A program made the position numbers and the translations under genes. Shown piece by piece: positions 8,807 to 40,837 of a stretch of 64,000 bases of DNA. This stretch comes from a virus, in the IMG/VR virus record IMGVR_UViG_3300042946_001661, positions 19,589 through 83,588 of that record; one strand, 5' to 3'. Below the pieces are notes generated by a model. That model did no database searches, was not told the DNA's origin, and worked only from the letters and a program-made list of their open reading frames with translations. How positions within the stretch are numbered: position 1 is the stretch's first letter; the number at the start of each line of letters is the position of its first letter.

Positions 8807-9254
8807 CATTTTCAATAATTTTAGATTTTATTAAAATGTTTTTTTCTTTATCTACAAGATCTTCAGAGTTATATGTTTTTAGAGTTGACCAATGAGGGTC
8901 ATCTTTTGGAATATATTCTTTTTTAGTATAATAAAAAAATTCTGCTATGTATTCGTATTCTTTATTTTCAACTTCATCAACACTCATACCTGAAAGGCGA
9001 TCATGCAAAATTTCTTTTAATACTTTTACCGAATCAATCCATCTGGCTTTTGCCATCTTTTGAATAATAGCAAGAGCTGAATACGCATTGTTTTCTAATG
9101 CATTTATTACATCTTTTTTAAGATCTCCTGGTCCGAATTTTGCTTTTGTTGTATAACATGCAATTACTTCATCTTTGCTAGGTTTATATTTTAAAGAAAC
9201 ATCTTTGAAGTATTCTGAAAAATTACTTTCATCAATTATCAACTCTTTGCTCAT
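8802..9254 (-). CDS. Hypothetical protein downstream of dnaE C-part
   Basis: 150 residues, no membrane or Cys features; the middle is helical (NALENNAYSALAIIQKMAKA). It overlaps the 3' end of the polymerase C-terminal gene by 23 bases and has an AAAAGG ribosome site, so it is probably coupled to it. No known family recognised; a role with the polymerase is only a positional guess. Confidence 0.6.
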   Translation of the reverse strand: MSKELIIDESNFSEYFKDVSLKYKPSKDEVIACYTTKAKFGPGDLKKDVINALENNAYSALAIIQKMAKARWIDSVKVLKEILHDRLSGMSVDEVENKEYEYIAEFFYYTKKEYIPKDDPHWSTLKTYNSEDLVDKEKNILIKSKIIENV

Positions 9255-10929
9255 CTTTTTCCTTTTTTCTAAGAACTACTATTCTGTAGTCGTCTTCTTT
9301 ATTAACAGTACTTTTTTTGAAAAAATTTCTTGGTCCAGTGCTAGCTATTGTGTATGTCTTGAAGCCTTTGCTTGGGGCACTTAATCTTACTCTAAGCAAA
9401 CTTCCAGGAACTAATTCATTTTGAAAATTAGCATAATCATCTTTCCATACATTTATAAGACCTTCATCACAATTACAATCTTCTGCTTTTACCTGATAGT
9501 ATTCTGCCTTTTTACCTTTCTTTTTACTACAAGATATTACCTCTATTTCCACAGGAAGAGTATCTCCAGAATCAGGCTCTAGTGTGTCGAAGGTTAATCC
9601 TCCCCTATAATCCGGACTGTCCTTTACATTACTGTGCCAAGCAAATCCATAATACTTCTTTTCACAGGCTACTAAATCATCAAATTCTTTTTTCAAGTTT
9701 TTATCAATTTTAGAATCATCAATAACAAAACCTTCTAGTCTAGGTTTCTCCAAATCTTCTTTATCTTCATATCTTTTTTTGGCAGTCTGTATCTTGTTAA
9801 TCATTTTACATATGTTTTTCCAAGCATCTTTGTTATTAATAATAAGTTTTAAATATCTCTTTTTCCAATCATCACATGATTTACTGCCAATTTTCAAAGA
9901 ATCTAAATCAATATAGTCTATCTCCCCACTAACTACTTTATTTTTAATAAAATCAGTATTCTCTGCCTCCTTGATCATTGAATAAAGAATCTCTTTATTT
10001 TTTTTTGCTGTATTTGCATACCTTTTTTTTCTATCTTGATTTTTCTTTATATAATCTTTATATTTTTCAGAGAACATAAAAAGAGTGTAAGGATCCGAAT
10101 CGGAGAAGCACCTAAGAGAAAGTAATGGCTTTAATACACTAGAATCTGTTCCGAATCTTTCAACAAAATCTTCAAAGTTTTTATATGGCTGTCTCTTTAC
10201 TATTTCTTTTGCTATAGGCTCTCCTATTCCTTTTATATTAGAAAAACCAAAATAAATATCATCTCCTATAAGGCTGAAGTTTTCTTTAGACAAATTAATA
10301 TCAACAGGCTTTAAATCTATTTTATGCTTAGTTATTTCTTTTCTATATTCTTTAATTTTATCGGCATCATTTTCACATGTTAAAATTGCAGTATAAAACT
10401 CATGAGGAAAATGAGACTTTAAATATAAAAGTCTTGAACTAATATGAGTATAACATACTGCATGACTTTTATTGAAGCCATATTCTGCAAAACTTTCAAT
10501 AAGTTTCCATAAATTTTCTAATTCTTCTTCAGAAGAATCCAAGTTCTTTTTTCCATTATTAATAAATGTTTCTTTGTATTTAATAAACTGTTCTACTTTT
10601 TTCTTACTAATAGCCTTTCTTACAGCTTCAACATCTCTCATTGGAATATTTCCAACCATGTTCAATATTTTCATTACTTGTTCTTGGTATACAATTACCC
10701 CATAAGTATCTTTTAATATTTCGTTTAAAATAGGATGTAATTTATATTCTTCTCTGCCTCTTTTTCTTTCTATGAATCTTTCATGCATTTTACAGTTATG
10801 AACAACAATATCTTGAGCAATAAAATTAGGCTCATCGATATAAAGATCATCTTCAATGATTAAAGAAATATCATAACATTCATCTTCGTCAACTTTTTCT
10901 ATAGAAATTATTTCATCATAATCAATCAT
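9232..10929 (-). CDS. dnaE: DnaE polymerase C-terminal part with split-intein C-half
   Basis: 565 residues. Residues 1-45 are a C-intein ending DIVVHN, followed by Cys46 as the +1 nucleophile. The next 520 residues are the C-part of a family-C DNA polymerase: FIERKRGREEYKLHP, GVIVYQEQVMKI, AVRKAISKKK, FAEYGFNKSHAVCYTH, LKSHFPHEFYTA, a helix-hairpin-helix (FSNIKGIGEPIAKEIVKR) and a C-terminal OB-like region (VEIEVISCSKKKGKKAEYYQ). It must be joined to the product of 11974-13287 by trans-splicing to give RPGPLN-CKMHERF, matching the uninterrupted DnaE pattern RPGP(L/M)-x(3)-M-x(3)-F/Y-I-x-RK. It overlaps the endonuclease gene by 8 bases. Confidence 0.92.
   Translation of the reverse strand: MIDYDEIISIEKVDEDECYDISLIIEDDLYIDEPNFIAQDIVVHNCKMHERFIERKRGREEYKLHPILNEILKDTYGVIVYQEQVMKILNMVGNIPMRDVEAVRKAISKKKVEQFIKYKETFINNGKKNLDSSEEELENLWKLIESFAEYGFNKSHAVCYTHISSRLLYLKSHFPHEFYTAILTCENDADKIKEYRKEITKHKIDLKPVDINLSKENFSLIGDDIYFGFSNIKGIGEPIAKEIVKRQPYKNFEDFVERFGTDSSVLKPLLSLRCFSDSDPYTLFMFSEKYKDYIKKNQDRKKRYANTAKKNKEILYSMIKEAENTDFIKNKVVSGEIDYIDLDSLKIGSKSCDDWKKRYLKLIINNKDAWKNICKMINKIQTAKKRYEDKEDLEKPRLEGFVIDDSKIDKNLKKEFDDLVACEKKYYGFAWHSNVKDSPDYRGGLTFDTLEPDSGDTLPVEIEVISCSKKKGKKAEYYQVKAEDCNCDEGLINVWKDDYANFQNELVPGSLLRVRLSAPSKGFKTYTIASTGPRNFFKKSTVNKEDDYRIVVLRKKEKDEQRVDN
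10795..10929 (-). other. Split intein, C-terminal half
   Basis: 45 residues encoded. Visible features are the block-F-like ECYDISLIIEDDLYI segment and the terminal block G IVVHN, with the catalytic His-Asn pair, immediately followed by Cys. This is enough for asparagine cyclisation and ligation if paired with its N-half. The length of the C-half is in the normal range for split inteins with a natural break near the endonuclease position. Confidence 0.9.
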
Positions 10930-11935
10930 TTTTTATACTTTCAAAAAAATTAATAACCCTTTTGTCGTTGCGAAACTTTTTTCTACTCATGTTACAATCA
11001 TTGAACTGCCAGTAATGAAAAAGAAAATTATTTTCTATCGCATAACTTTCACCAGCCTTTAATTTTGCTTCAGATTTTTCGGCATCAATTTGATAAACAT
11101 ATCCTGATTTTAACTCTACTAAAAATTTTTCATTAATTAAAAAATCCGGAAAATATTTTTTATTTTTGCCGCAATAATTATAAGCAATACAACAAGGTGT
11201 TGCAAACCAAGATTTAACATATGGGGAATCATCTAGTAGTTCGGAGAGCCATAATTCAAGTCTCGATCTAAGAAAAAAATCACAATTCATTTTTTTTGAA
11301 TAGAATGACTTGCCTGTGCTACTAAATACATAGTCAGGATGAACTTTTCGATAATTATTATTACAGTCTTTAGAGCAAAATTTAATTTTAGGTCTTGGCT
11401 TTCCTCCAACCCATATAATAATTTGTTTATCACAAAATGCACAATTACTATATTTGGCTTTGCCTTTAGCCAAAGGGTATAATCTCTGGTAGTCTTCGGG
11501 TGTCCGCTTTTCTCTCAATTGTTTAAGCTTTTCATTCCCGGCAGATGTGAAAGCAAATAATAATTTTTTTCTTTCTTCGGGAGAAACAGATTTAACCTTA
11601 CTAACCCAAGCGTCTGACGCCATTTTAACAACTTTTTTTCTAGTCTCTGGTTTGAGGATATCTCCTTTTTCATATGCTTTTTTCATACGCTCAGATCTAT
11701 TTTTTTTAACATGTGCTTGATTGCTATAATCTTTGACTTTTTTAGCAATTGAAAATACAGTCTCATTAGATTCTTTGGTTTCACCTTTATTCCAAACATC
11801 GGGTATTTGATTTTTATATTCTTCTGTTTGCTCGGGAAACATTTGCAAATACTTCGTTTTTTTAATTTTATGAGACGAGTTTAAATGTCTGTAAAATTTG
11901 TCTGAAATTTCTCTATTGCATAATTTACATATCAT
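10922..11935 (-). CDS. Vsr-like/PD-(D/E)XK homing endonuclease inside the fractured dnaE
   Basis: 337 residues. An N-terminal C2H2-like finger (ICKLCNREISDKFYRHLNSSH) and a basic DNA-binding middle are followed by a Cys4 cluster (CAFCDKQ, FCSKDCNNN). The C-terminal nuclease domain has SRLELWLSELLDD, then YFPDFLI and FLVELKSGY, the D...E-x-K signature of a Vsr-like fold, followed by KAGESYAIENNFLFHYWQ. Free-standing endonucleases of this type are known between the halves of split-intein genes (fractured genes, Dassa and co-workers). The gene sits 38 bases after the N-intein stop and overlaps the C-intein start by 8 bases. It probably spreads the insertion by cutting uninterrupted dnaE. Confidence 0.82.
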   Translation of the reverse strand: MICKLCNREISDKFYRHLNSSHKIKKTKYLQMFPEQTEEYKNQIPDVWNKGETKESNETVFSIAKKVKDYSNQAHVKKNRSERMKKAYEKGDILKPETRKKVVKMASDAWVSKVKSVSPEERKKLLFAFTSAGNEKLKQLREKRTPEDYQRLYPLAKGKAKYSNCAFCDKQIIIWVGGKPRPKIKFCSKDCNNNYRKVHPDYVFSSTGKSFYSKKMNCDFFLRSRLELWLSELLDDSPYVKSWFATPCCIAYNYCGKNKKYFPDFLINEKFLVELKSGYVYQIDAEKSEAKLKAGESYAIENNFLFHYWQFNDCNMSRKKFRNDKRVINFFESIKND

Positions 11936-11973
11936 TGTAGCCTCCAGGACTATTCAATAATATGTAGGAGATT

Positions 11974-13287
11974 TTATTTTAATTTTTTAGCAATTTTTTG
12001 CCCAACAGATAATTTTTCGGCTTCAATAAATTCATCTTTATCGGTAAGGATTTTATGTTCATTTGAACACAAAATTACTTTTCCAGATTTAGTTTTAATT
12101 TTTAATAATTTTTTATAACCAGTTTTTATTAAAATAAATTTTTCAGTATATTTAATTTTCTTTTTTTTACTTAAATAGGCAATTTTATCTAACCCAGGCT
12201 TCAAATCTTTTATTTTTTTATATCCAAGATTTGTATTAACTTTTACATCTTTTTGAAGACAATTCAAAGGACCTGGACGATATAATGATGAGTAGGCAAC
12301 AAGATCTTCAAATCTTGTAACACCACCAGCTTTAGCTAATGATCTAATACCTGGGCTATCAAACTGAAAGATACATTTAAGGTCTCCTTCATTAGCCATT
12401 TCTAGGGATTTTAAATCATTCCTATACTCATCTATGTTGCTCCAATTGCCTTGACCAGGAAATGCACATATTTTATCAATACCTTTTCTATCTTTTATAA
12501 GCTTACAACACTTTGCAATCTGAAGAAGATTACTGATCACAAGCAAATCAAATTTAACAAGTCCTACTGGCTGTAGATCTTGTCCATGAAGACCTTCTAC
12601 CCAAGCACTTGCCTGAGGGCTATCTTTTCTTTTTATAAGAGGAACAAGATCGGTTAAAGGAATAGAGCTTACAATCAAACCTCCAGCATGTATACCTGTC
12701 CCTCTGTTTCTATTAATTAGTTTTTGAGCAGCCTTTGCTATATCTGGGTGTTCTTCGCAGTATTTCTTAAGCATAGGATCAGTTTTCATAGCTGAATCCC
12801 ATGTGAGAACTTTTCCTTCATCATCTTTTGTTTGAAGATTTGTTGTTAAAGCGAGTATTTCTCCTCTTTCTTCTCCGTGAACTCTAACCATATCGATAAG
12901 AGAGGATTTAATACCAAAAGTAGTATAGTTTCCTATATTACAGACATATTGCTCTCCAAATGTTTTAGGAGCCCATTCATTCTTTAAAAAATCACGAACA
13001 GCAGGAATAAAATCCACATCGATATCCGGAGAATCACCTTGTACATAATTTGGATCTTTTTCTATATCAAAATTTGGTACTATTTCTAGTAGCCAACACA
13101 CCAAAAGATTATTTTCATTATCTGGATAATTTACATTTCTGGTCACCATATCTAGAAAGTAATTTTCCTTATTTTGAGAAATTATCTCTTGTTTTTCCCA
13201 TTCTAATCTTTTTTGATATCTTTTATCTTCATACAATCCTTTTTCTTTTAATTTTTCTTCACAAATTTTAAATATGTTTGATTTCAT
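11974..13287 (-). CDS. dnaE: DnaE polymerase central (catalytic) part with split-intein N-half
   Basis: 437 residues. Residues 1-342 are the N-extein with the polymerase active site: GDSPDIDVDF (first two catalytic Asp) near 85-94, and VGLVKFDLLVISNL (third Asp) near 248. Other family motifs are GIHAGGLIVS, CIFQFDSPGI and VAYSSLYRPGPLN. Residues 343-437 are the N-intein starting CLQKDVKV. The first 80 residues contain a second copy of a segment (RYQKRLEWEKQEI ... NYFLDMVTRN) that also appears near the end of the PHP-part gene, and lack the GPGRGSAGGSL motif, which is only in that other gene. No Shine-Dalgarno sequence; TATATAATATAG lies upstream. Confidence 0.92.
   Translation of the reverse strand: MKSNIFKICEEKLKEKGLYEDKRYQKRLEWEKQEIISQNKENYFLDMVTRNVNYPDNENNLLVCWLLEIVPNFDIEKDPNYVQGDSPDIDVDFIPAVRDFLKNEWAPKTFGEQYVCNIGNYTTFGIKSSLIDMVRVHGEERGEILALTTNLQTKDDEGKVLTWDSAMKTDPMLKKYCEEHPDIAKAAQKLINRNRGTGIHAGGLIVSSIPLTDLVPLIKRKDSPQASAWVEGLHGQDLQPVGLVKFDLLVISNLLQIAKCCKLIKDRKGIDKICAFPGQGNWSNIDEYRNDLKSLEMANEGDLKCIFQFDSPGIRSLAKAGGVTRFEDLVAYSSLYRPGPLNCLQKDVKVNTNLGYKKIKDLKPGLDKIAYLSKKKKIKYTEKFILIKTGYKKLLKIKTKSGKVILCSNEHKILTDKDEFIEAEKLSVGQKIAKKLK
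11977..12261 (-). other. Split intein, N-terminal half
   Basis: 95 residues. It begins at Cys1 (block A, CLQKDVKVNTNLGYKKIKDL) directly after RPGPLN, and has a block B SNEHKILTDKDEFIEA with the conserved His in the N/T-x-x-H position. It ends IAKKLK at the stop. Block A and B spacing is normal, so thioester formation should work. The insertion point in the conserved RPGP loop of DnaE differs from the cyanobacterial split DnaE intein site. Confidence 0.9.
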
Positions 13288-13346: not shown

Positions 13347-14441
13347 ATGAAAAAATCAATGAAAAAAGCAATTCTTATTTACAAAGAAGGAAAATCAATA
13401 GAAAAGTCCGCAGCTGAAGCGGAAGTATCTTTTCAAGGACTTCAATATCAACTTAAAAAACTTGGTTTAACAAGAAGTGCCGAAGAAGCCGCTCACAAGA
13501 GCTATACATCAGAGAGTTTAAAAGAAGCATTGAGTCTTTACGAAAATGGAAAAAGTTTAAATGAAGTTAATAAAATAACAAAGGTTTCTCTACACACATT
13601 GAGAAAAGAAATAAAAAGATTAAAAATATCAAAAAAGAAAATTATTAAATATGATCATATATTAGAAAAATCAATAGATTTATACTTATCAGGATTATCC
13701 ACCATAAAGGTAAAAAATATAACTGGTATAGGGCTTGGCAAGTTAACAAAAAATCTTAAAAAAAGAGGGCTTATTCGTAGTAATAAAATAAATTCAAGAA
13801 AATATCATGTAAATTATGATTTTTTTAAAAATATAGATAATGAACACAAAGCGTATTGGCTTGGTTTTATTTATGCTGACGGTTACATTAGCCGAATAAA
13901 TAAAAATAAAAAAATTGGAATATCATTAAACATAAAAGATATGGATCATCTAGAGGTTTTTAAAAAACAAATTAATGCTACATATCCAATAAATATTTAT
14001 AAGTCGAAGTCTTTTGGAGGAGTAGAAATAGAATATTGCAGACTACTTATTACTTCAGATCAATTGTTTGATGATTTAATTGACAAAGGAGTTTTCGAAA
14101 AAAAGACATTAATATTAAAATTTCCAAATGAATCTATAGTTCCAAAAAACTTACAACATCATTTTATAAGAGGATATTTTGATGGTGATGGATCTTTCAA
14201 AAAAAGTAATGGTAAATATTATGTTTTTAATCTATGTGGTACAAAAGAATTTCTACTAAAATGTCAAGAAATACTTCATAAAAATACAAAACTAGAAAAA
14301 AGGCACAAGGATAATAAAAACAACTATAGTTTTTCGATAGGAGGCAGATTACAAGCCAAAAAAATAGGTGATTACTTATACAAGAATGCTACTGTATACT
14401 TAGAAAGAAAATATAACAGATATAAAGAAATGTGTTTTTAA
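13347..14441 (+). CDS. LAGLIDADG homing endonuclease
   Basis: 364 residues. Residues 1-150 hold three repeats of a short helix-turn-helix-like module (for example AAEAEVSFQGLQYQLKKLGL, VNKITKVSLHTLRKEIKRL, VKNITGIGLGKLTKNLKKRG), probably for DNA binding. Two LAGLIDADG motifs follow: YWLGFIYADGYI and HFIRGYFDGDGSF, each with the acidic catalytic residue. The SD is AAGGAC. It is divergent from the dnaE central part (59 bases) and lies in the gap that separates that gene from the PHP part, so it may have caused or exploited that break. The gene is intact. Confidence 0.88.
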   Translation: MKKSMKKAILIYKEGKSIEKSAAEAEVSFQGLQYQLKKLGLTRSAEEAAHKSYTSESLKEALSLYENGKSLNEVNKITKVSLHTLRKEIKRLKISKKKIIKYDHILEKSIDLYLSGLSTIKVKNITGIGLGKLTKNLKKRGLIRSNKINSRKYHVNYDFFKNIDNEHKAYWLGFIYADGYISRINKNKKIGISLNIKDMDHLEVFKKQINATYPINIYKSKSFGGVEIEYCRLLITSDQLFDDLIDKGVFEKKTLILKFPNESIVPKNLQHHFIRGYFDGDGSFKKSNGKYYVFNLCGTKEFLLKCQEILHKNTKLEKRHKDNKNNYSFSIGGRLQAKKIGDYLYKNATVYLERKYNRYKEMCF

Positions 14442-14673: not shown

Positions 14674-15621
14674 ATGCCTTTCAAAAAATTTAATGAATTC
14701 TTAAACGAACAAAAGAAAAATAAGAAGACTAAAAAAAGTGATAAAAAGGCATTAGGAATTAGTGGCGATAAGTCTCTTGTTTATAAACCAAAAGTTCATA
14801 AATATGATAAAATTAAAGACAAGGGACTCGGAAATATTGGAGATGAAAAAAACATCTACGAACCAGACACAGGTCCAGAGCTACAGAAAAAAGCTCCAGA
14901 ATGGCATAAAACAAACATTAAAGAATGGTTAAACAAAACAAAAAAATTATCTGTTTCTGAATTTGCAAAAAAAATTCAAGAAGAAAAAAGTGTAAAAGTA
15001 AATATTAATAAAATAAAAAATGCTGAAGATCTTATTGGCAATTTTGTAGAAACATTAAAAAGCAATCCAAAATTAATAGAGGTTGCATCAAGAGAGTTTA
15101 ACAGATCCGGATTACTTGAAGGTTTTATTGTAGAGCTCAGTAAAATAAAAAGATCAAAAAGAATACACGAATCAATTAGTGAGCCTGTTGGGTTTGAAGA
15201 CGAAGAAGGCATGGAAGGCATGGAAGATGAAGAAGGCATGGAAGGCATGGAAGATGAAGAAGGCATGGAAGATGAAGAAGGCATGGAAGATGAAGAAGGC
15301 ATGGAAGACGAAGAAGGCATGGAAGACGAAGAAGGCATGGAAGACGAAGAAGGCATGGAAGACGAAGAAGGCATGGAAGACGAAGAAGGCATGGAAGACG
15401 AAGAAGAAGGTTATAGACGCCATCGTCATCGTCACCATCATCATGACGAAGAAGATGATGAGTTTGGGGACGAAGAAATGGAAGATGAAGATGATAGCGA
15501 AAATTTAGATAGCGATGATCTTGAGGATCATGGTTATAATAAAAACCAAGATATGGAAGATGATTCGCCCCTAGGGAGAAGATCTGGCATGCGTAGGGAT
15601 TATTTTTCAGACGAAATTTAA
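14674..15621 (+). CDS. Acidic repeat protein with capsid-targeting-like N-terminus
   Basis: 315 residues. N-terminus MPFKKFNEFLNEQKK resembles the T4 internal-protein targeting peptide (MKTYQEFIAE), with a possible cleavage after Glu. Residues 1-170 are basic and helical. Residues about 175-246 hold about ten DEEGME repeats; then HRHRHHHHDEEDDE and a further Asp/Glu-rich tail. The SD is GGAG. A basic head plus very acidic tail with a targeting peptide suggests a prohead-core or internal capsid protein, comparable to T4 gp67, but this is by composition only. Confidence 0.65.
   Translation: MPFKKFNEFLNEQKKNKKTKKSDKKALGISGDKSLVYKPKVHKYDKIKDKGLGNIGDEKNIYEPDTGPELQKKAPEWHKTNIKEWLNKTKKLSVSEFAKKIQEEKSVKVNINKIKNAEDLIGNFVETLKSNPKLIEVASREFNRSGLLEGFIVELSKIKRSKRIHESISEPVGFEDEEGMEGMEDEEGMEGMEDEEGMEDEEGMEDEEGMEDEEGMEDEEGMEDEEGMEDEEGMEDEEGMEDEEEGYRRHRHRHHHHDEEDDEFGDEEMEDEDDSENLDSDDLEDHGYNKNQDMEDDSPLGRRSGMRRDYFSDEI
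15199..15411 (+). repeat. 18-bp tandem coding repeat (DEEGME)
   Basis: About ten units of GAYGAAGAAGGCATGGAA in frame; the first two carry an extra GGCATGGAA. Units 2-5 use GAT for Asp, and unit 1 and units 6-10 use GAC, so the array appears to have expanded in blocks. It creates long artificial open frames on both strands. Confidence 0.9.
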
Positions 15622-15849: not shown

Positions 15850-17223
15850 TTAATCCTTAAATTCTAAAATCATACTTCTCCCACCTCTAGATTCTGAAAG
15901 AAATCTAGAGAATAGTAAGTCTTCTTTTATAGGATCAACATCCGTTATTCCTAGACAGTAGCATACGAGAGAACCTCCAGCACTCCCTCGACCCGGTCCT
16001 ACTGCATCGCTTCCATCGCCCCATCCTAATATTTCAGGACAAACTCGTCGGGCTTCATCTGTCATCATTTTTTGAATAAGAAAATAACTACTAAATCCTT
16101 TTCTCTTGATTAATGATATCTCTTCTTTTATTCTTGAAGAATATACTTTTGTTTTTGGTAAATTTCTTTTATTAAAACCTTGTACGACCAAATCTCTTAA
16201 TTTGTCATCAGAATTTTCAATATTAGGCAGCTTTAAACTTCTATCGAAGGTCACACCTTTTGCCATTTCGCATATTTTAACTGTATTCTTTTTAGCTTCT
16301 TGAAACAATTCATATGGAATAATATCTTTGTAATCACTTAACCATTTTTCATTAAGCTCTTCTTCACTCTTCATCCAAAGATTAGCATCTTGAAGCTCAA
16401 AAAAATCAACCATTGCATCTTTTTGTTTTGCTTCTTCTATCTCCTTTAAAGTTCTATTTGTTTGAATCATCAACATTAATCTTTGATAATGACTATCTTC
16501 TTTTTTGCAATAATGAACATCACAACTTACGATCAAAGGTAATTTATATCTTTCATGACACTTGATTATAAAAGCGTCATAAGCAAACTGTTTTTTAAAG
16601 TCTAGTAGCATTAATTCTAAATAATAATGCTCTCTACCAAACATTTCCAAATGCTTTTCAAGCATTTGGAATCCAGCTTCTTCTCCACCCTTGTCAAAAG
16701 CTCTACCTATCTCGCTATTATAGCAACAGCTTGTAAAAATAAGACCTTCTCTATGCTTTTTTAATTGTTCGTAATTGACTCTAGGCTTTCTATAGAAGCC
16801 TTTAGTCCAACCCCAACTAGTTAAACGTACTAAATTTTTATAGCCCTCTAAATTGTACGCTATAGCCAGCAAGTGAGGACTAGCTTTAAAAACATCCATC
16901 TCATCTGGAGATAATTCTTTTGTAAAATCTTGAAGATCCTCAAGACCAGAACTTTCTGGTTGTAATGAATTTATATATAATTCTGAAGCAAATATTGGGG
17001 ATAATTTATTTTTATCTTTATGTTTATCACATATCTTATCGCATATTTTAATTTGTCTGGGTACAGCTCCTAACATTCCGTGATCTGAAACTGTTAAGAA
17101 TTTTTGATTAATTTCAACGGCGCGATTACCTGCTTCCTCAACGGTTTGAAAACCATCAAGCAAAGAATAGTCTGTATGGAGGTGAAGATGTTCAAATCCA
17201 ACAATTTCTACCTTATCTTTCAT
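15850..17223 (-). CDS. dnaE: DnaE polymerase N-terminal part: PHP domain and start of palm
   Basis: 457 residues from the ATG at 17223, which overlaps the stop of the gene before it (ATGA); an ATG at 17238 is also in frame. The PHP domain starts FEHLHLHTDYSLLDGFQTVE with metal-binding His residues, then TVSDHGMLGA and ASELYI. The protein runs to the palm motif AVGPGRGSAGGSLVCYCLGI and ends shortly after LLFSRFLSESRGGR with the tail SMILEFKD, just where the catalytic PDIDVDF should follow. That motif is in the gene at 11974-13287. No intein is seen at this break, so the parts would have to associate without splicing. Confidence 0.9.
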   Translation of the reverse strand: MKDKVEIVGFEHLHLHTDYSLLDGFQTVEEAGNRAVEINQKFLTVSDHGMLGAVPRQIKICDKICDKHKDKNKLSPIFASELYINSLQPESSGLEDLQDFTKELSPDEMDVFKASPHLLAIAYNLEGYKNLVRLTSWGWTKGFYRKPRVNYEQLKKHREGLIFTSCCYNSEIGRAFDKGGEEAGFQMLEKHLEMFGREHYYLELMLLDFKKQFAYDAFIIKCHERYKLPLIVSCDVHYCKKEDSHYQRLMLMIQTNRTLKEIEEAKQKDAMVDFFELQDANLWMKSEEELNEKWLSDYKDIIPYELFQEAKKNTVKICEMAKGVTFDRSLKLPNIENSDDKLRDLVVQGFNKRNLPKTKVYSSRIKEEISLIKRKGFSSYFLIQKMMTDEARRVCPEILGWGDGSDAVGPGRGSAGGSLVCYCLGITDVDPIKEDLLFSRFLSESRGGRSMILEFKD

Positions 17224-17405
17224 GCAACAACTTTCCATTCTTTACCAGTAAAAATGTATAACACGTTAAGATTATTGTTAAAATAAAGATCCCCAACTTT
17301 TAAATTTTTTGGAGGTAATCCTACATACACCCCACTATACTGTTTTTTCGAAGTTTTATTTATAAAAGATTCAAATAATTTATTTTTTTCTTTTTTTATA
17401 GCCAT
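17220..17405 (-). CDS. Small phage protein, unknown
   Basis: 61 residues from the ATG at 17405; a longer frame exists but without a better start. The C-terminal part KVGDLYFNNNLNVLYIFTGK followed by EWKVVA is a beta-hairpin pattern found in small virion-associated repeats (G-D-L-x-x-N-x-x-x-x-x-L-Y-x-x-x-G-x-x-W). The stop overlaps the start of the PHP gene. Function unknown. Confidence 0.6.
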   Translation of the reverse strand: MAIKKEKNKLFESFINKTSKKQYSGVYVGLPPKNLKVGDLYFNNNLNVLYIFTGKEWKVVA

Positions 17406-39544: not shown

Positions 39545-40837
39545 ATGTTAGAAGAAGAACTATTAAAGTATTTATCCGAGATATCCTCAGATAACACTAT
39601 TTATATAAAAACAGACCCAGAATACATAGACTTTACAGATAAAAATTTTCAATTTAATATAGAAATATATTCAAGAAGTAAAAAGCTTACAAAACTAGTG
39701 GACAACAGTAATTTCGATACACTTAACAGCATTTTGAAAGTTGCGTTATTTTTAAATAATAAAAAAATAATAACTTGGAATATAAAAAATTACTTTAGTT
39801 ACTATAAAAACAAAACAGGTAAAGATTTAGACACTGAGTGTCAGATATTGGATTTAAAAATACTGGAAAGATTATGTGGTATTTATTCTGAAAAGGCTCC
39901 CATCTCTTTTAAAGAGGCTATAGAGAGGTTTTCTGTGATATACCCATCTAAGTGGAGTAGAATAAGCAATTTGTATAAAGAAATTTACTGTCCTTTATTT
40001 TTAAAAGTTATTCCATCGATAGAAAACAAAGGAATAGTAGACATAGAAGAAAGAAATATAAAATACTGTTACTACGAGATAGAAGGGCAAGAGAACGGTA
40101 GGTTAAGTTCTTTTAATTGTTTTAAAAATGGATTTATGCCATTAAATTTAAAAAAAGAAGATAAACAAAAATATAGACCGTTAAATCAAGATGATTTATT
40201 TTTACTTTTCGATTACAAAAATATGGAAGTCAGTGTTTTAGAATATTTAACTAAAGACAAGGCTTTGAAAGATGTTTTAAATGAAGGGGATGATTTTTAT
40301 GAATCTTTGTATAAAAAGATAATAAACCCTAATAATTTCGATCAAGAAAAAAGAAAAAAAATGAAAATGATTTTTTTACCTTTCATATATGGAGCTGGAA
40401 TTAAAAAAATCAGCGAATCATGTAAAATAGAATCTTCTAAGGTTGAAGTTATTACAAAAAGAATAAAAGAAACATTCCCAAAAACTTTTACATGGTTGGA
40501 TAATTTTTCTAAAAATAATCAAGATGGGTATTATATAAATACTTTTGGAAAAATAAGAAAAATTGATCAATCCTACAAAAGTATTAATTTTATAGTACAG
40601 TCTACTGCAAGCATATTCTGCTTAGATAAACTCATAGATTTATATTATGTTTATAAAAAGTCTATGTGTTTTTATGTTCACGATGCTTATTGTTTATATT
40701 CAAGTAAAAAAGAACTTGAATCAAACATAGAAATGATTAAAAATATCCTTTTACAAGATAGCAAGTTTTTGAATAATATTCATTTAAGTGTTAGTTGTAA
40801 ATACGGAGAAAATTTGAATGAAATGAAAGAATTTTAA
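39545..40837 (+). CDS. Short family-A DNA polymerase
   Basis: 430 residues, so much shorter than E. coli PolA. Residues 60-115 (NNKKIITWNIKNYFSYYKNK ... DLKILERLCG) look like a degenerate 3'-5' exonuclease-type domain. The polymerase core has GQENGRLSSF, motif A FLLFDYKNMEVSVLE (Asp223), motif B RKKMKMIFLPFIYGAG, and motif C CFYVHDAYCLY (His379, Asp380), where the usual Glu after Asp is Ala. It probably fills gaps or matures fragments next to the DnaE polymerase. It is followed by a good ribosome site for the next gene. Confidence 0.85.
   Translation: MLEEELLKYLSEISSDNTIYIKTDPEYIDFTDKNFQFNIEIYSRSKKLTKLVDNSNFDTLNSILKVALFLNNKKIITWNIKNYFSYYKNKTGKDLDTECQILDLKILERLCGIYSEKAPISFKEAIERFSVIYPSKWSRISNLYKEIYCPLFLKVIPSIENKGIVDIEERNIKYCYYEIEGQENGRLSSFNCFKNGFMPLNLKKEDKQKYRPLNQDDLFLLFDYKNMEVSVLEYLTKDKALKDVLNEGDDFYESLYKKIINPNNFDQEKRKKMKMIFLPFIYGAGIKKISESCKIESSKVEVITKRIKETFPKTFTWLDNFSKNNQDGYYINTFGKIRKIDQSYKSINFIVQSTASIFCLDKLIDLYYVYKKSMCFYVHDAYCLYSSKKELESNIEMIKNILLQDSKFLNNIHLSVSCKYGENLNEMKEF

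What the first reader, a model, noticed from the sequence alone, without database searches (positions are those of the whole stretch)
9232..13287. Fractured DnaE gene: split intein with a Vsr-like endonuclease gene between the halves
Seen directly: the gene at 11974-13287 ends in an N-intein that starts at Cys directly after RPGPLN, and the gene at 9232-10929 begins with a 45-residue C-intein ending HN before Cys. Joining the exteins restores the continuous DnaE RPGP loop. Between them sits a 337-residue Vsr-like endonuclease with PDF...VELK, 38 bases from one half and overlapping the other by 8. Known: fractured genes with split inteins and Vsr-like enzymes were described from metagenomes (Dassa and co-workers), with the fast-splicing gp41-1 and NrdJ-1 inteins. 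Inference: an active replisome needs this trans-splice, so the intein may be a very fast one, and its insertion in the RPGP loop of DnaE could be a new site.
Basis: partly seen in the sequence, partly recalled or inferred. Interest (0 to 1): 0.82.

Follow-up and report, generated by a model that had tools for sequence, protein, structure and literature searches.

The report
Split-intein phage DnaE with nested endonuclease
In an uncultured T4-like phage the gene for a DNA polymerase (DnaE) is cut in two by a split intein, a protein element that should splice the halves together, with a mobile DNA-cutting enzyme gene parked between them; the layout is a known kind, but this host-gene site, this nuclease type and the cargo and neighbouring inserts in related phages look new.

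Summary
In detail: p2 (11974-13287 -) ends in a 95-residue N-intein after RPGPLN, p3 (9232-10929 -) starts with a 45-residue C-intein before Cys, and a 337-residue endonuclease gene lies between (38-base gap, 8-base overlap). A second assembly (99.9% DNA identity) and three diverged phage lineages keep the layout. About 28 related lineages are uninterrupted at this residue pair. So it is a fractured gene with a split intein plus a homing-endonuclease gene. The intein resembles gp41-1. Each occupied lineage has an empty nearest sampled relative (at least four gains or losses), and one close occupied/empty pair differs in a sharply bounded tract at the intein sites: a mobile element. Two corrections. 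The nuclease is TnsA/phage-gp4-type PD-(D/E)XK, not Vsr/EDxHD by sequence. DnaE is in three genes: PHP plus the GPGRGS palm segment is a separate gene (15850-17238 -), an intein-free fission shared by the clade. "Very fast" splicing and essentiality are unsupported; the virus also has a PolA. In relatives the gap also holds a NaeI-like nuclease plus a DNA methylase (L143), and a second site (FNK|SHA) holds inteins with an out-of-frame, overprinted EDxHD/Vsr-like endonuclease. New variant of a known kind; splicing and cutting are untested.

The parts
12262..13287 (-). p2 extein: DnaE palm (PDIDVDF, KFDLL) to first part of fingers, ends RPGPLN (342 aa); residues 1-84 are a palm N-part copy lacking GPGRGS
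11974..12261 (-). N-intein, 95 aa, Cys1, block B CSNEH, plus stop codon
   Evidence: TIGR01445 above cut-off; Pfam Intein_splicing below cut-off; joined intein vs gp41-1 E=1.3e-4
10922..11935 (-). free-standing homing-endonuclease gene, 337 aa: N-terminal zinc-finger-like and NUMOD3-like stretch, CxxC/CxxxC, C-terminal TnsA-type PD-(D/E)XK (E227, D264, E274, K276); GGAGG ribosome-binding site
10795..10929 (-). C-intein, 45 aa, ends VVHN; start overlaps the HEG stop by 8 bases
9232..10794 (-). p3 extein: rest of DnaE fingers, HhH, C-terminal part; Cys+1 (520 aa)
15850..17238 (-). p1: PHP domain + palm segment with GPGRGSAGG of the same polymerase, separate gene without intein (462 aa)
   Evidence: phrog_405 residues 37-439; Pfam PHP; separate in the clade, fused in L001

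Best explanation
A bifunctional intein in the DnaE fingers domain has come apart at the usual endonuclease position. Its N-half is fused to p2, its C-half to p3, and its endonuclease has become an independent gene with its own start between them. Inferred steps: the halves associate, Cys1 and Cys+1 do the acyl shifts, Asn cyclises at VVHN, and DnaE is joined as RPGPLN-CKMHER; the 862-residue product works with the separately encoded PHP/GPGRGS subunit. At the DNA level the endonuclease is inferred to cut intein-free dnaE alleles of co-infecting phages at or near this codon pair, so that repair copies intein, nuclease gene and a short stretch of flank.
For: Intein signals on both halves; C1, block B His, His-Asn and Cys+1 kept wherever they can be seen in the four lineages. 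The split cuts a single folded Pfam domain, and about 28 lineages keep p2 and p3 fused at exactly this point. The halves and HEG still differ most at third codon positions. Mobility: occupied lineages are scattered, starred branches force at least 4 gains/losses; L003 and its close empty relative L006 differ by 14/31 bases next to the site against 15/269 beyond it (p=2e-8), with the tract ending 3 bases past the second intein site; L143/L042 shows a similar dip downstream. Nuclease domain: pLDDT 91, TnsA E=1e-4, catalytic residues invariant in 22 relatives.
Against: No splicing, expression or cutting data. Intein and HEG have diverged about as much as the exteins between lineages, so no recent long-range jump is visible. 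The direction of the L003/L006 exchange is unresolved: the pattern also fits replacement by an empty segment in L006. Block F lacks the usual His.
Confidence: 0.83

Rival explanations
1. The halves work as two associated chains; the intein parts serve only as a docking module and no peptide bond is formed.
For: The same polymerase already tolerates an intein-free fission between p1 and p2, and split-intein halves bind tightly in general (own knowledge).
Against: Catalytic residues C1, block B His, HN and Cys+1 are kept in diverged lineages; the cut is inside one domain.
Confidence: 0.08
2. The element has killed DnaE in this virus; another polymerase (PolA family, 39545-40837 +) replicates the genome.
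For: A family-A polymerase is present.
Against: No stop or frameshift in any DnaE part; codon-position differences show constraint; same layout in four lineages.
Confidence: 0.05
3. The nuclease gene is a free-standing passenger that does not target this site (for example a derivative of the phage head-completion nuclease).
For: Its nuclease domain is homologous to a phage protein (phrog_218 head closure) present in most clade records.
Against: Full-length homologues were found only between these intein halves, in four lineages, and never without the intein; it carries extra zinc-finger/NUMOD-like parts typical of homing enzymes.
Confidence: 0.12
4. Assembly or sequencing error creating the stop codons.
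For: Metagenomic record.
Against: Second assembly identical over the locus and three diverged copies.
Confidence: 0.01

Closest known systems
Fractured genes of Dassa et al. 2009 (gp41-1, NrdJ-1, IMPDH-1, NrdA-2; NAR 37:2560; text not held here, known from citing papers PMC12350094, PMC7090010)
   Same: Host gene cut into two ORFs by a split intein with a free-standing endonuclease gene between; the joined intein is closest in the PDB to gp41-1
   Different: Host gene is DnaE; the endonuclease is TnsA/gp4-type PD-(D/E)XK and not EDxHD/Vsr by sequence; host polymerase additionally has a third gene
Split PolB of Pseudomonas jumbo phage MIJ3 (PMC6892783)
   Same: Phage replicative polymerase fractured by a split intein with an endonuclease gene between the halves
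   Different: Family-B polymerase, HNH endonuclease
Cyanobacterial split DnaE intein (Ssp/Npu DnaE)
   Same: Split intein in DnaE
   Different: Other insertion site (about 105 residues downstream, FAEY|C, own knowledge), no endonuclease gene between, halves far apart in the genome (own knowledge)
ShiLan element with hidden out-of-frame HNH (PMC11855218)
   Same: Relevant to the second site in relatives (L020-L022, L146): endonuclease overprinted out of frame with the host frame open
   Different: ShiLan has no splicing domain; here the host frame encodes recognisable intein ends

Membership tests
Fractured gene with split intein | Two adjacent ORFs carry N- and C-exteins of one protein, each fused to one intein half | tested here: met
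   uninterrupted relatives
Fractured gene with split intein | Free-standing endonuclease gene between the halves | tested here: met
Fractured gene with split intein | Halves trans-splice | not testable with these tools
   needs expression
Vsr-like / EDxHD homing endonucleases | Vsr/DUF559-type catalytic domain | tested here: not met
   no Vsr/DUF559 hit; TnsA_N and DUF7487 match instead; catalytic set E..PD..ExK. Fold: TnsA E=1e-4 first, I-Bth0305I E=0.11, TM(target) 0.61, so same superfamily, other branch
PD-(D/E)XK nuclease, TnsA / phage head-completion branch | alpha-beta core with E, PD, ExK invariant | tested here: met
Intein, class 1 | Cys1, block B His, C-terminal His-Asn, Cys/Ser/Thr +1 | tested here: met
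Homing endonuclease | Cuts the element-free allele | not testable with these tools
   indirect only: patchy distribution and bounded exchange tract
Cyanobacterial split DnaE intein | Insertion FAEY|CFNKSH | tested here: not met
   window site lies at RPGPLN|C, 105 residues upstream (reference site from own knowledge)

The most novel reading that the evidence does not exclude
One phage polymerase gene family shows several stages of intein-nuclease life at once: split intein with a separate nuclease gene, the same gap enlarged with a restriction nuclease and methylase (L143), cis-inteins whose nuclease is overprinted out of frame (L020-L022, L146), their relics (L003, L014), and a LAGLIDADG-fractured copy (L030). 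The gap between split-intein halves would be a neutral cargo slot in which further selfish genes accumulate, their host gene being kept functional by trans-splicing.
Probability: 0.45. Interest if true: 0.8.

Novelty: new variant of a known kind. Interest (0 to 1): 0.62.

Why it matters
It gives a natural system with occupied and empty alleles for testing how a nested endonuclease leaves an intein and how a replicative polymerase survives being cut. It offers an uncharacterised split intein family at a new-looking DnaE position and a TnsA-type homing nuclease. The cargo (restriction nuclease plus methylase between intein halves) and the overprinted nucleases at the neighbouring site make open questions on mobile-element stacking directly testable.

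Tried and rejected
Vsr-like label: rejected on HMM and motif evidence. RNA intron between the exons: no Rfam intron in the window, and intein motifs explain both ends. Artefact: rejected by L002 and three diverged copies. First fold of the full nuclease with 3 sequences was poor (pLDDT 57; PDB matches not significant); replaced by the domain with 22 sequences. Bacterial genome scans with nuclease and C-intein alignments found nothing. GenBank phage search with the nuclease found nothing. A circular-shift test of the L003/L006 mismatch cluster was not significant because the downstream tract is also divergent; the one-sided upstream test is. Literature for an earlier intein at RPGP found nothing, but the open library is incomplete and the Dassa paper is not held.

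Full report
What is there. On the minus strand lie p2 (11974-13287), an endonuclease gene (10922-11935) and p3 (9232-10929), in three different frames. p2 matches DnaE palm and the first part of the fingers domain, then an N-intein; p3 starts with a C-intein and goes on with the rest of the fingers domain (Pfam fingers model 4-107 and 82-165). Joining the exteins gives ...YRPGPLN-CKMHERF..., which aligns along Taq and E. coli Pol III alpha (E=7.5e-72 and 7e-61). The joined 140-residue intein is closest in the PDB to gp41-1 (E=1.3e-4).

Not an artefact. An independent IMG/VR assembly (L002) is 99.9% identical, with 18 gap bases and no mismatches over 17.3 kb. L003/L023, L029 (contig starts inside the nuclease gene) and L143 carry the same order: p2-N-intein, nuclease, C-intein-p3. 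Protein identity to the window is 41-51% for the N-intein, 68-78% for the C-intein and 52-65% for the nuclease.

The empty site. About 28 distinct related lineages have p2 and p3 as one ORF across this exact residue pair; +1 is Met in most of them, Ser, Gly, Ala or Val in some, and Cys in L007. No cis-intein was seen at this site.

The polymerase is in three genes. PHROG 405 positions 37-439, 441-708 and 683-1055 fall to p1 (15850-17238 -), p2 and p3. p1 carries PHP and GPGRGSAGG. p2 begins with a second, GPGRGS-less copy of the palm segment before PDIDVDF. This p1/p2 break has no intein and is shared by the clade, while L001 (a 595-kb phage) has one ORF. The virus also has a family-A polymerase, ribonucleotide reductase, DnaB, RecA, gp32-like and T4-type tail genes.

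The nuclease. Full length it matches DUF7487 and, weakly, TnsA_N and PHROG 218 head closure. Most clade records have a separate 209-281-residue protein (phrog_218 in the member scanned) whose domain aligns with the nuclease domain; S-K, RS..E, PD and ExK are invariant or nearly so in 22 sequences. A profile of these finds TnsA entries (E=1e-8) and phage endonuclease I. The modelled domain (pLDDT 91) matches TnsA (E=1e-4) before the EDxHD homing enzyme I-Bth0305I (E=0.11), and viral NUMOD-bearing endonucleases and head-completion nucleases. So 'Vsr-like' holds only at superfamily level.

Mobility. On the extein tree the four occupied lineages are scattered, each with an empty lineage as or next to its nearest relative; supported branches force at least four gains or losses. 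L003 and L006 are about 94% identical in DNA up to 29 bases before the site; then 14 of 31 bases differ (Fisher p=2e-8; codons are not independent, so the figure is nominal). The divergent tract runs through the 327-base extein stretch to 3 bases past the second intein site FNK|SHA, after which identity is 95% again. L143 against L042 shows a dip over about 170 bases downstream. This is what homing with flank co-conversion predicts, but for L003/L006 the reverse, replacement by an empty segment in L006, fits as well. Intein and nuclease have diverged about as far as the exteins, so the element is old in this clade.

Mechanism. Shown: the anatomy, retained catalytic residues, constraint on codon positions, patchy distribution and bounded exchange tracts. 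Inferred: trans-splicing, assembly with p1, cleavage of empty alleles. Translation signals fit: the nuclease has GGAGG; p3 overlaps its stop by 8 bases, suggesting coupling.

Relatives extend the picture. L143 holds, between nuclease and C-intein, a 177-residue gene matching NaeI (Pfam E=6.5e-21; PDB 1ev7 E=1.3e-7, only the endonuclease half) and a DNA methylase (PHROG 56, E=5.6e-9): a possible restriction-modification pair inside the fracture. At the second site FNK|SHA, inteins of L020, L021, L022 and L146 contain 290-341-codon ORFs, offset by one base from the intein frame, with zinc-finger-like repeats and a VDF..IEVDGxxHF nuclease motif of EDxHD/DUF559 look (L146 DUF559 E=0.003, below cut-off). 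The nuclease frame is the more conserved (58% against 40%), yet the intein frame has no stop in any of the four, against about 18 expected under synonymous permutation (0 of 2000). L014 and L003 keep shortened relics. L030 is fractured at this site with a LAGLIDADG gene between. A hidden out-of-frame nuclease is known from ShiLan (PMC11855218), but there without splicing domains.

Known versus new. Fractured genes with split inteins are known (Dassa 2009, via PMC12350094 and PMC7090010), including a phage PolB with HNH (PMC6892783). New here, as far as could be checked: DnaE as host at RPGPLN|C, a TnsA-type nuclease in this role, the three-gene polymerase, the cargo in L143 and the overprinted inteins next door. 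Verdict: new variant of a known kind, well supported in anatomy, untested in biochemistry.

Noticed in passing
L020:9685-10677 +, L021:9652-10521 +, L022:9592-10614 +, L146:5148-6113 +: Inteins at DnaE FNK|SHA carry an endonuclease ORF (zinc fingers + EDxHD/Vsr-like motif) overprinted out of frame inside the intein reading frame, which stays free of stops (0 of 2000 synonymous permutations as open in each of the four). Possibly a new intein architecture.
   Followed up: partly
L143:2679-3984 +: Between the nuclease gene and the C-intein of a fractured DnaE sit a NaeI-like restriction nuclease gene (177 aa, endonuclease half only) and a DNA methylase gene (268 aa).
   Followed up: partly
window 15850-17238 - and 13035-13287 -: Clade-wide, intein-free fission of DnaE inside the palm: p1 has PHP and GPGRGS, p2 starts with a duplicated palm segment without GPGRGS. 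How the active site is assembled is unknown.
   Followed up: partly
L030:4972-9299 +: DnaE fractured at FNK|SHA with intein halves and a LAGLIDADG endonuclease gene between them.
   Followed up: partly
L029:8043-10397 - and L022:324-2948 +: p1 also carries cis-inteins with LAGLIDADG-like regions, in L029 inside the GPGRG|S loop.
   Followed up: no
window 13347-14441 +: LAGLIDADG endonuclease gene with HTH repeats between p1 and p2 on the other strand, also in L004 (79%).
   Followed up: no
window 14976-15392: EEGMED tandem repeat coding region with overlapping ORFs on both strands; the window and L002 differ only by 18 gap bases over 17 kb, probably here.
   Followed up: no
L146:3011-6679 +: Distant DnaE with a cis mini-intein in the HAGG motif whose C-terminal part is 59% identical to the window's C-intein: a possible cis relative of the split intein.
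   Followed up: no
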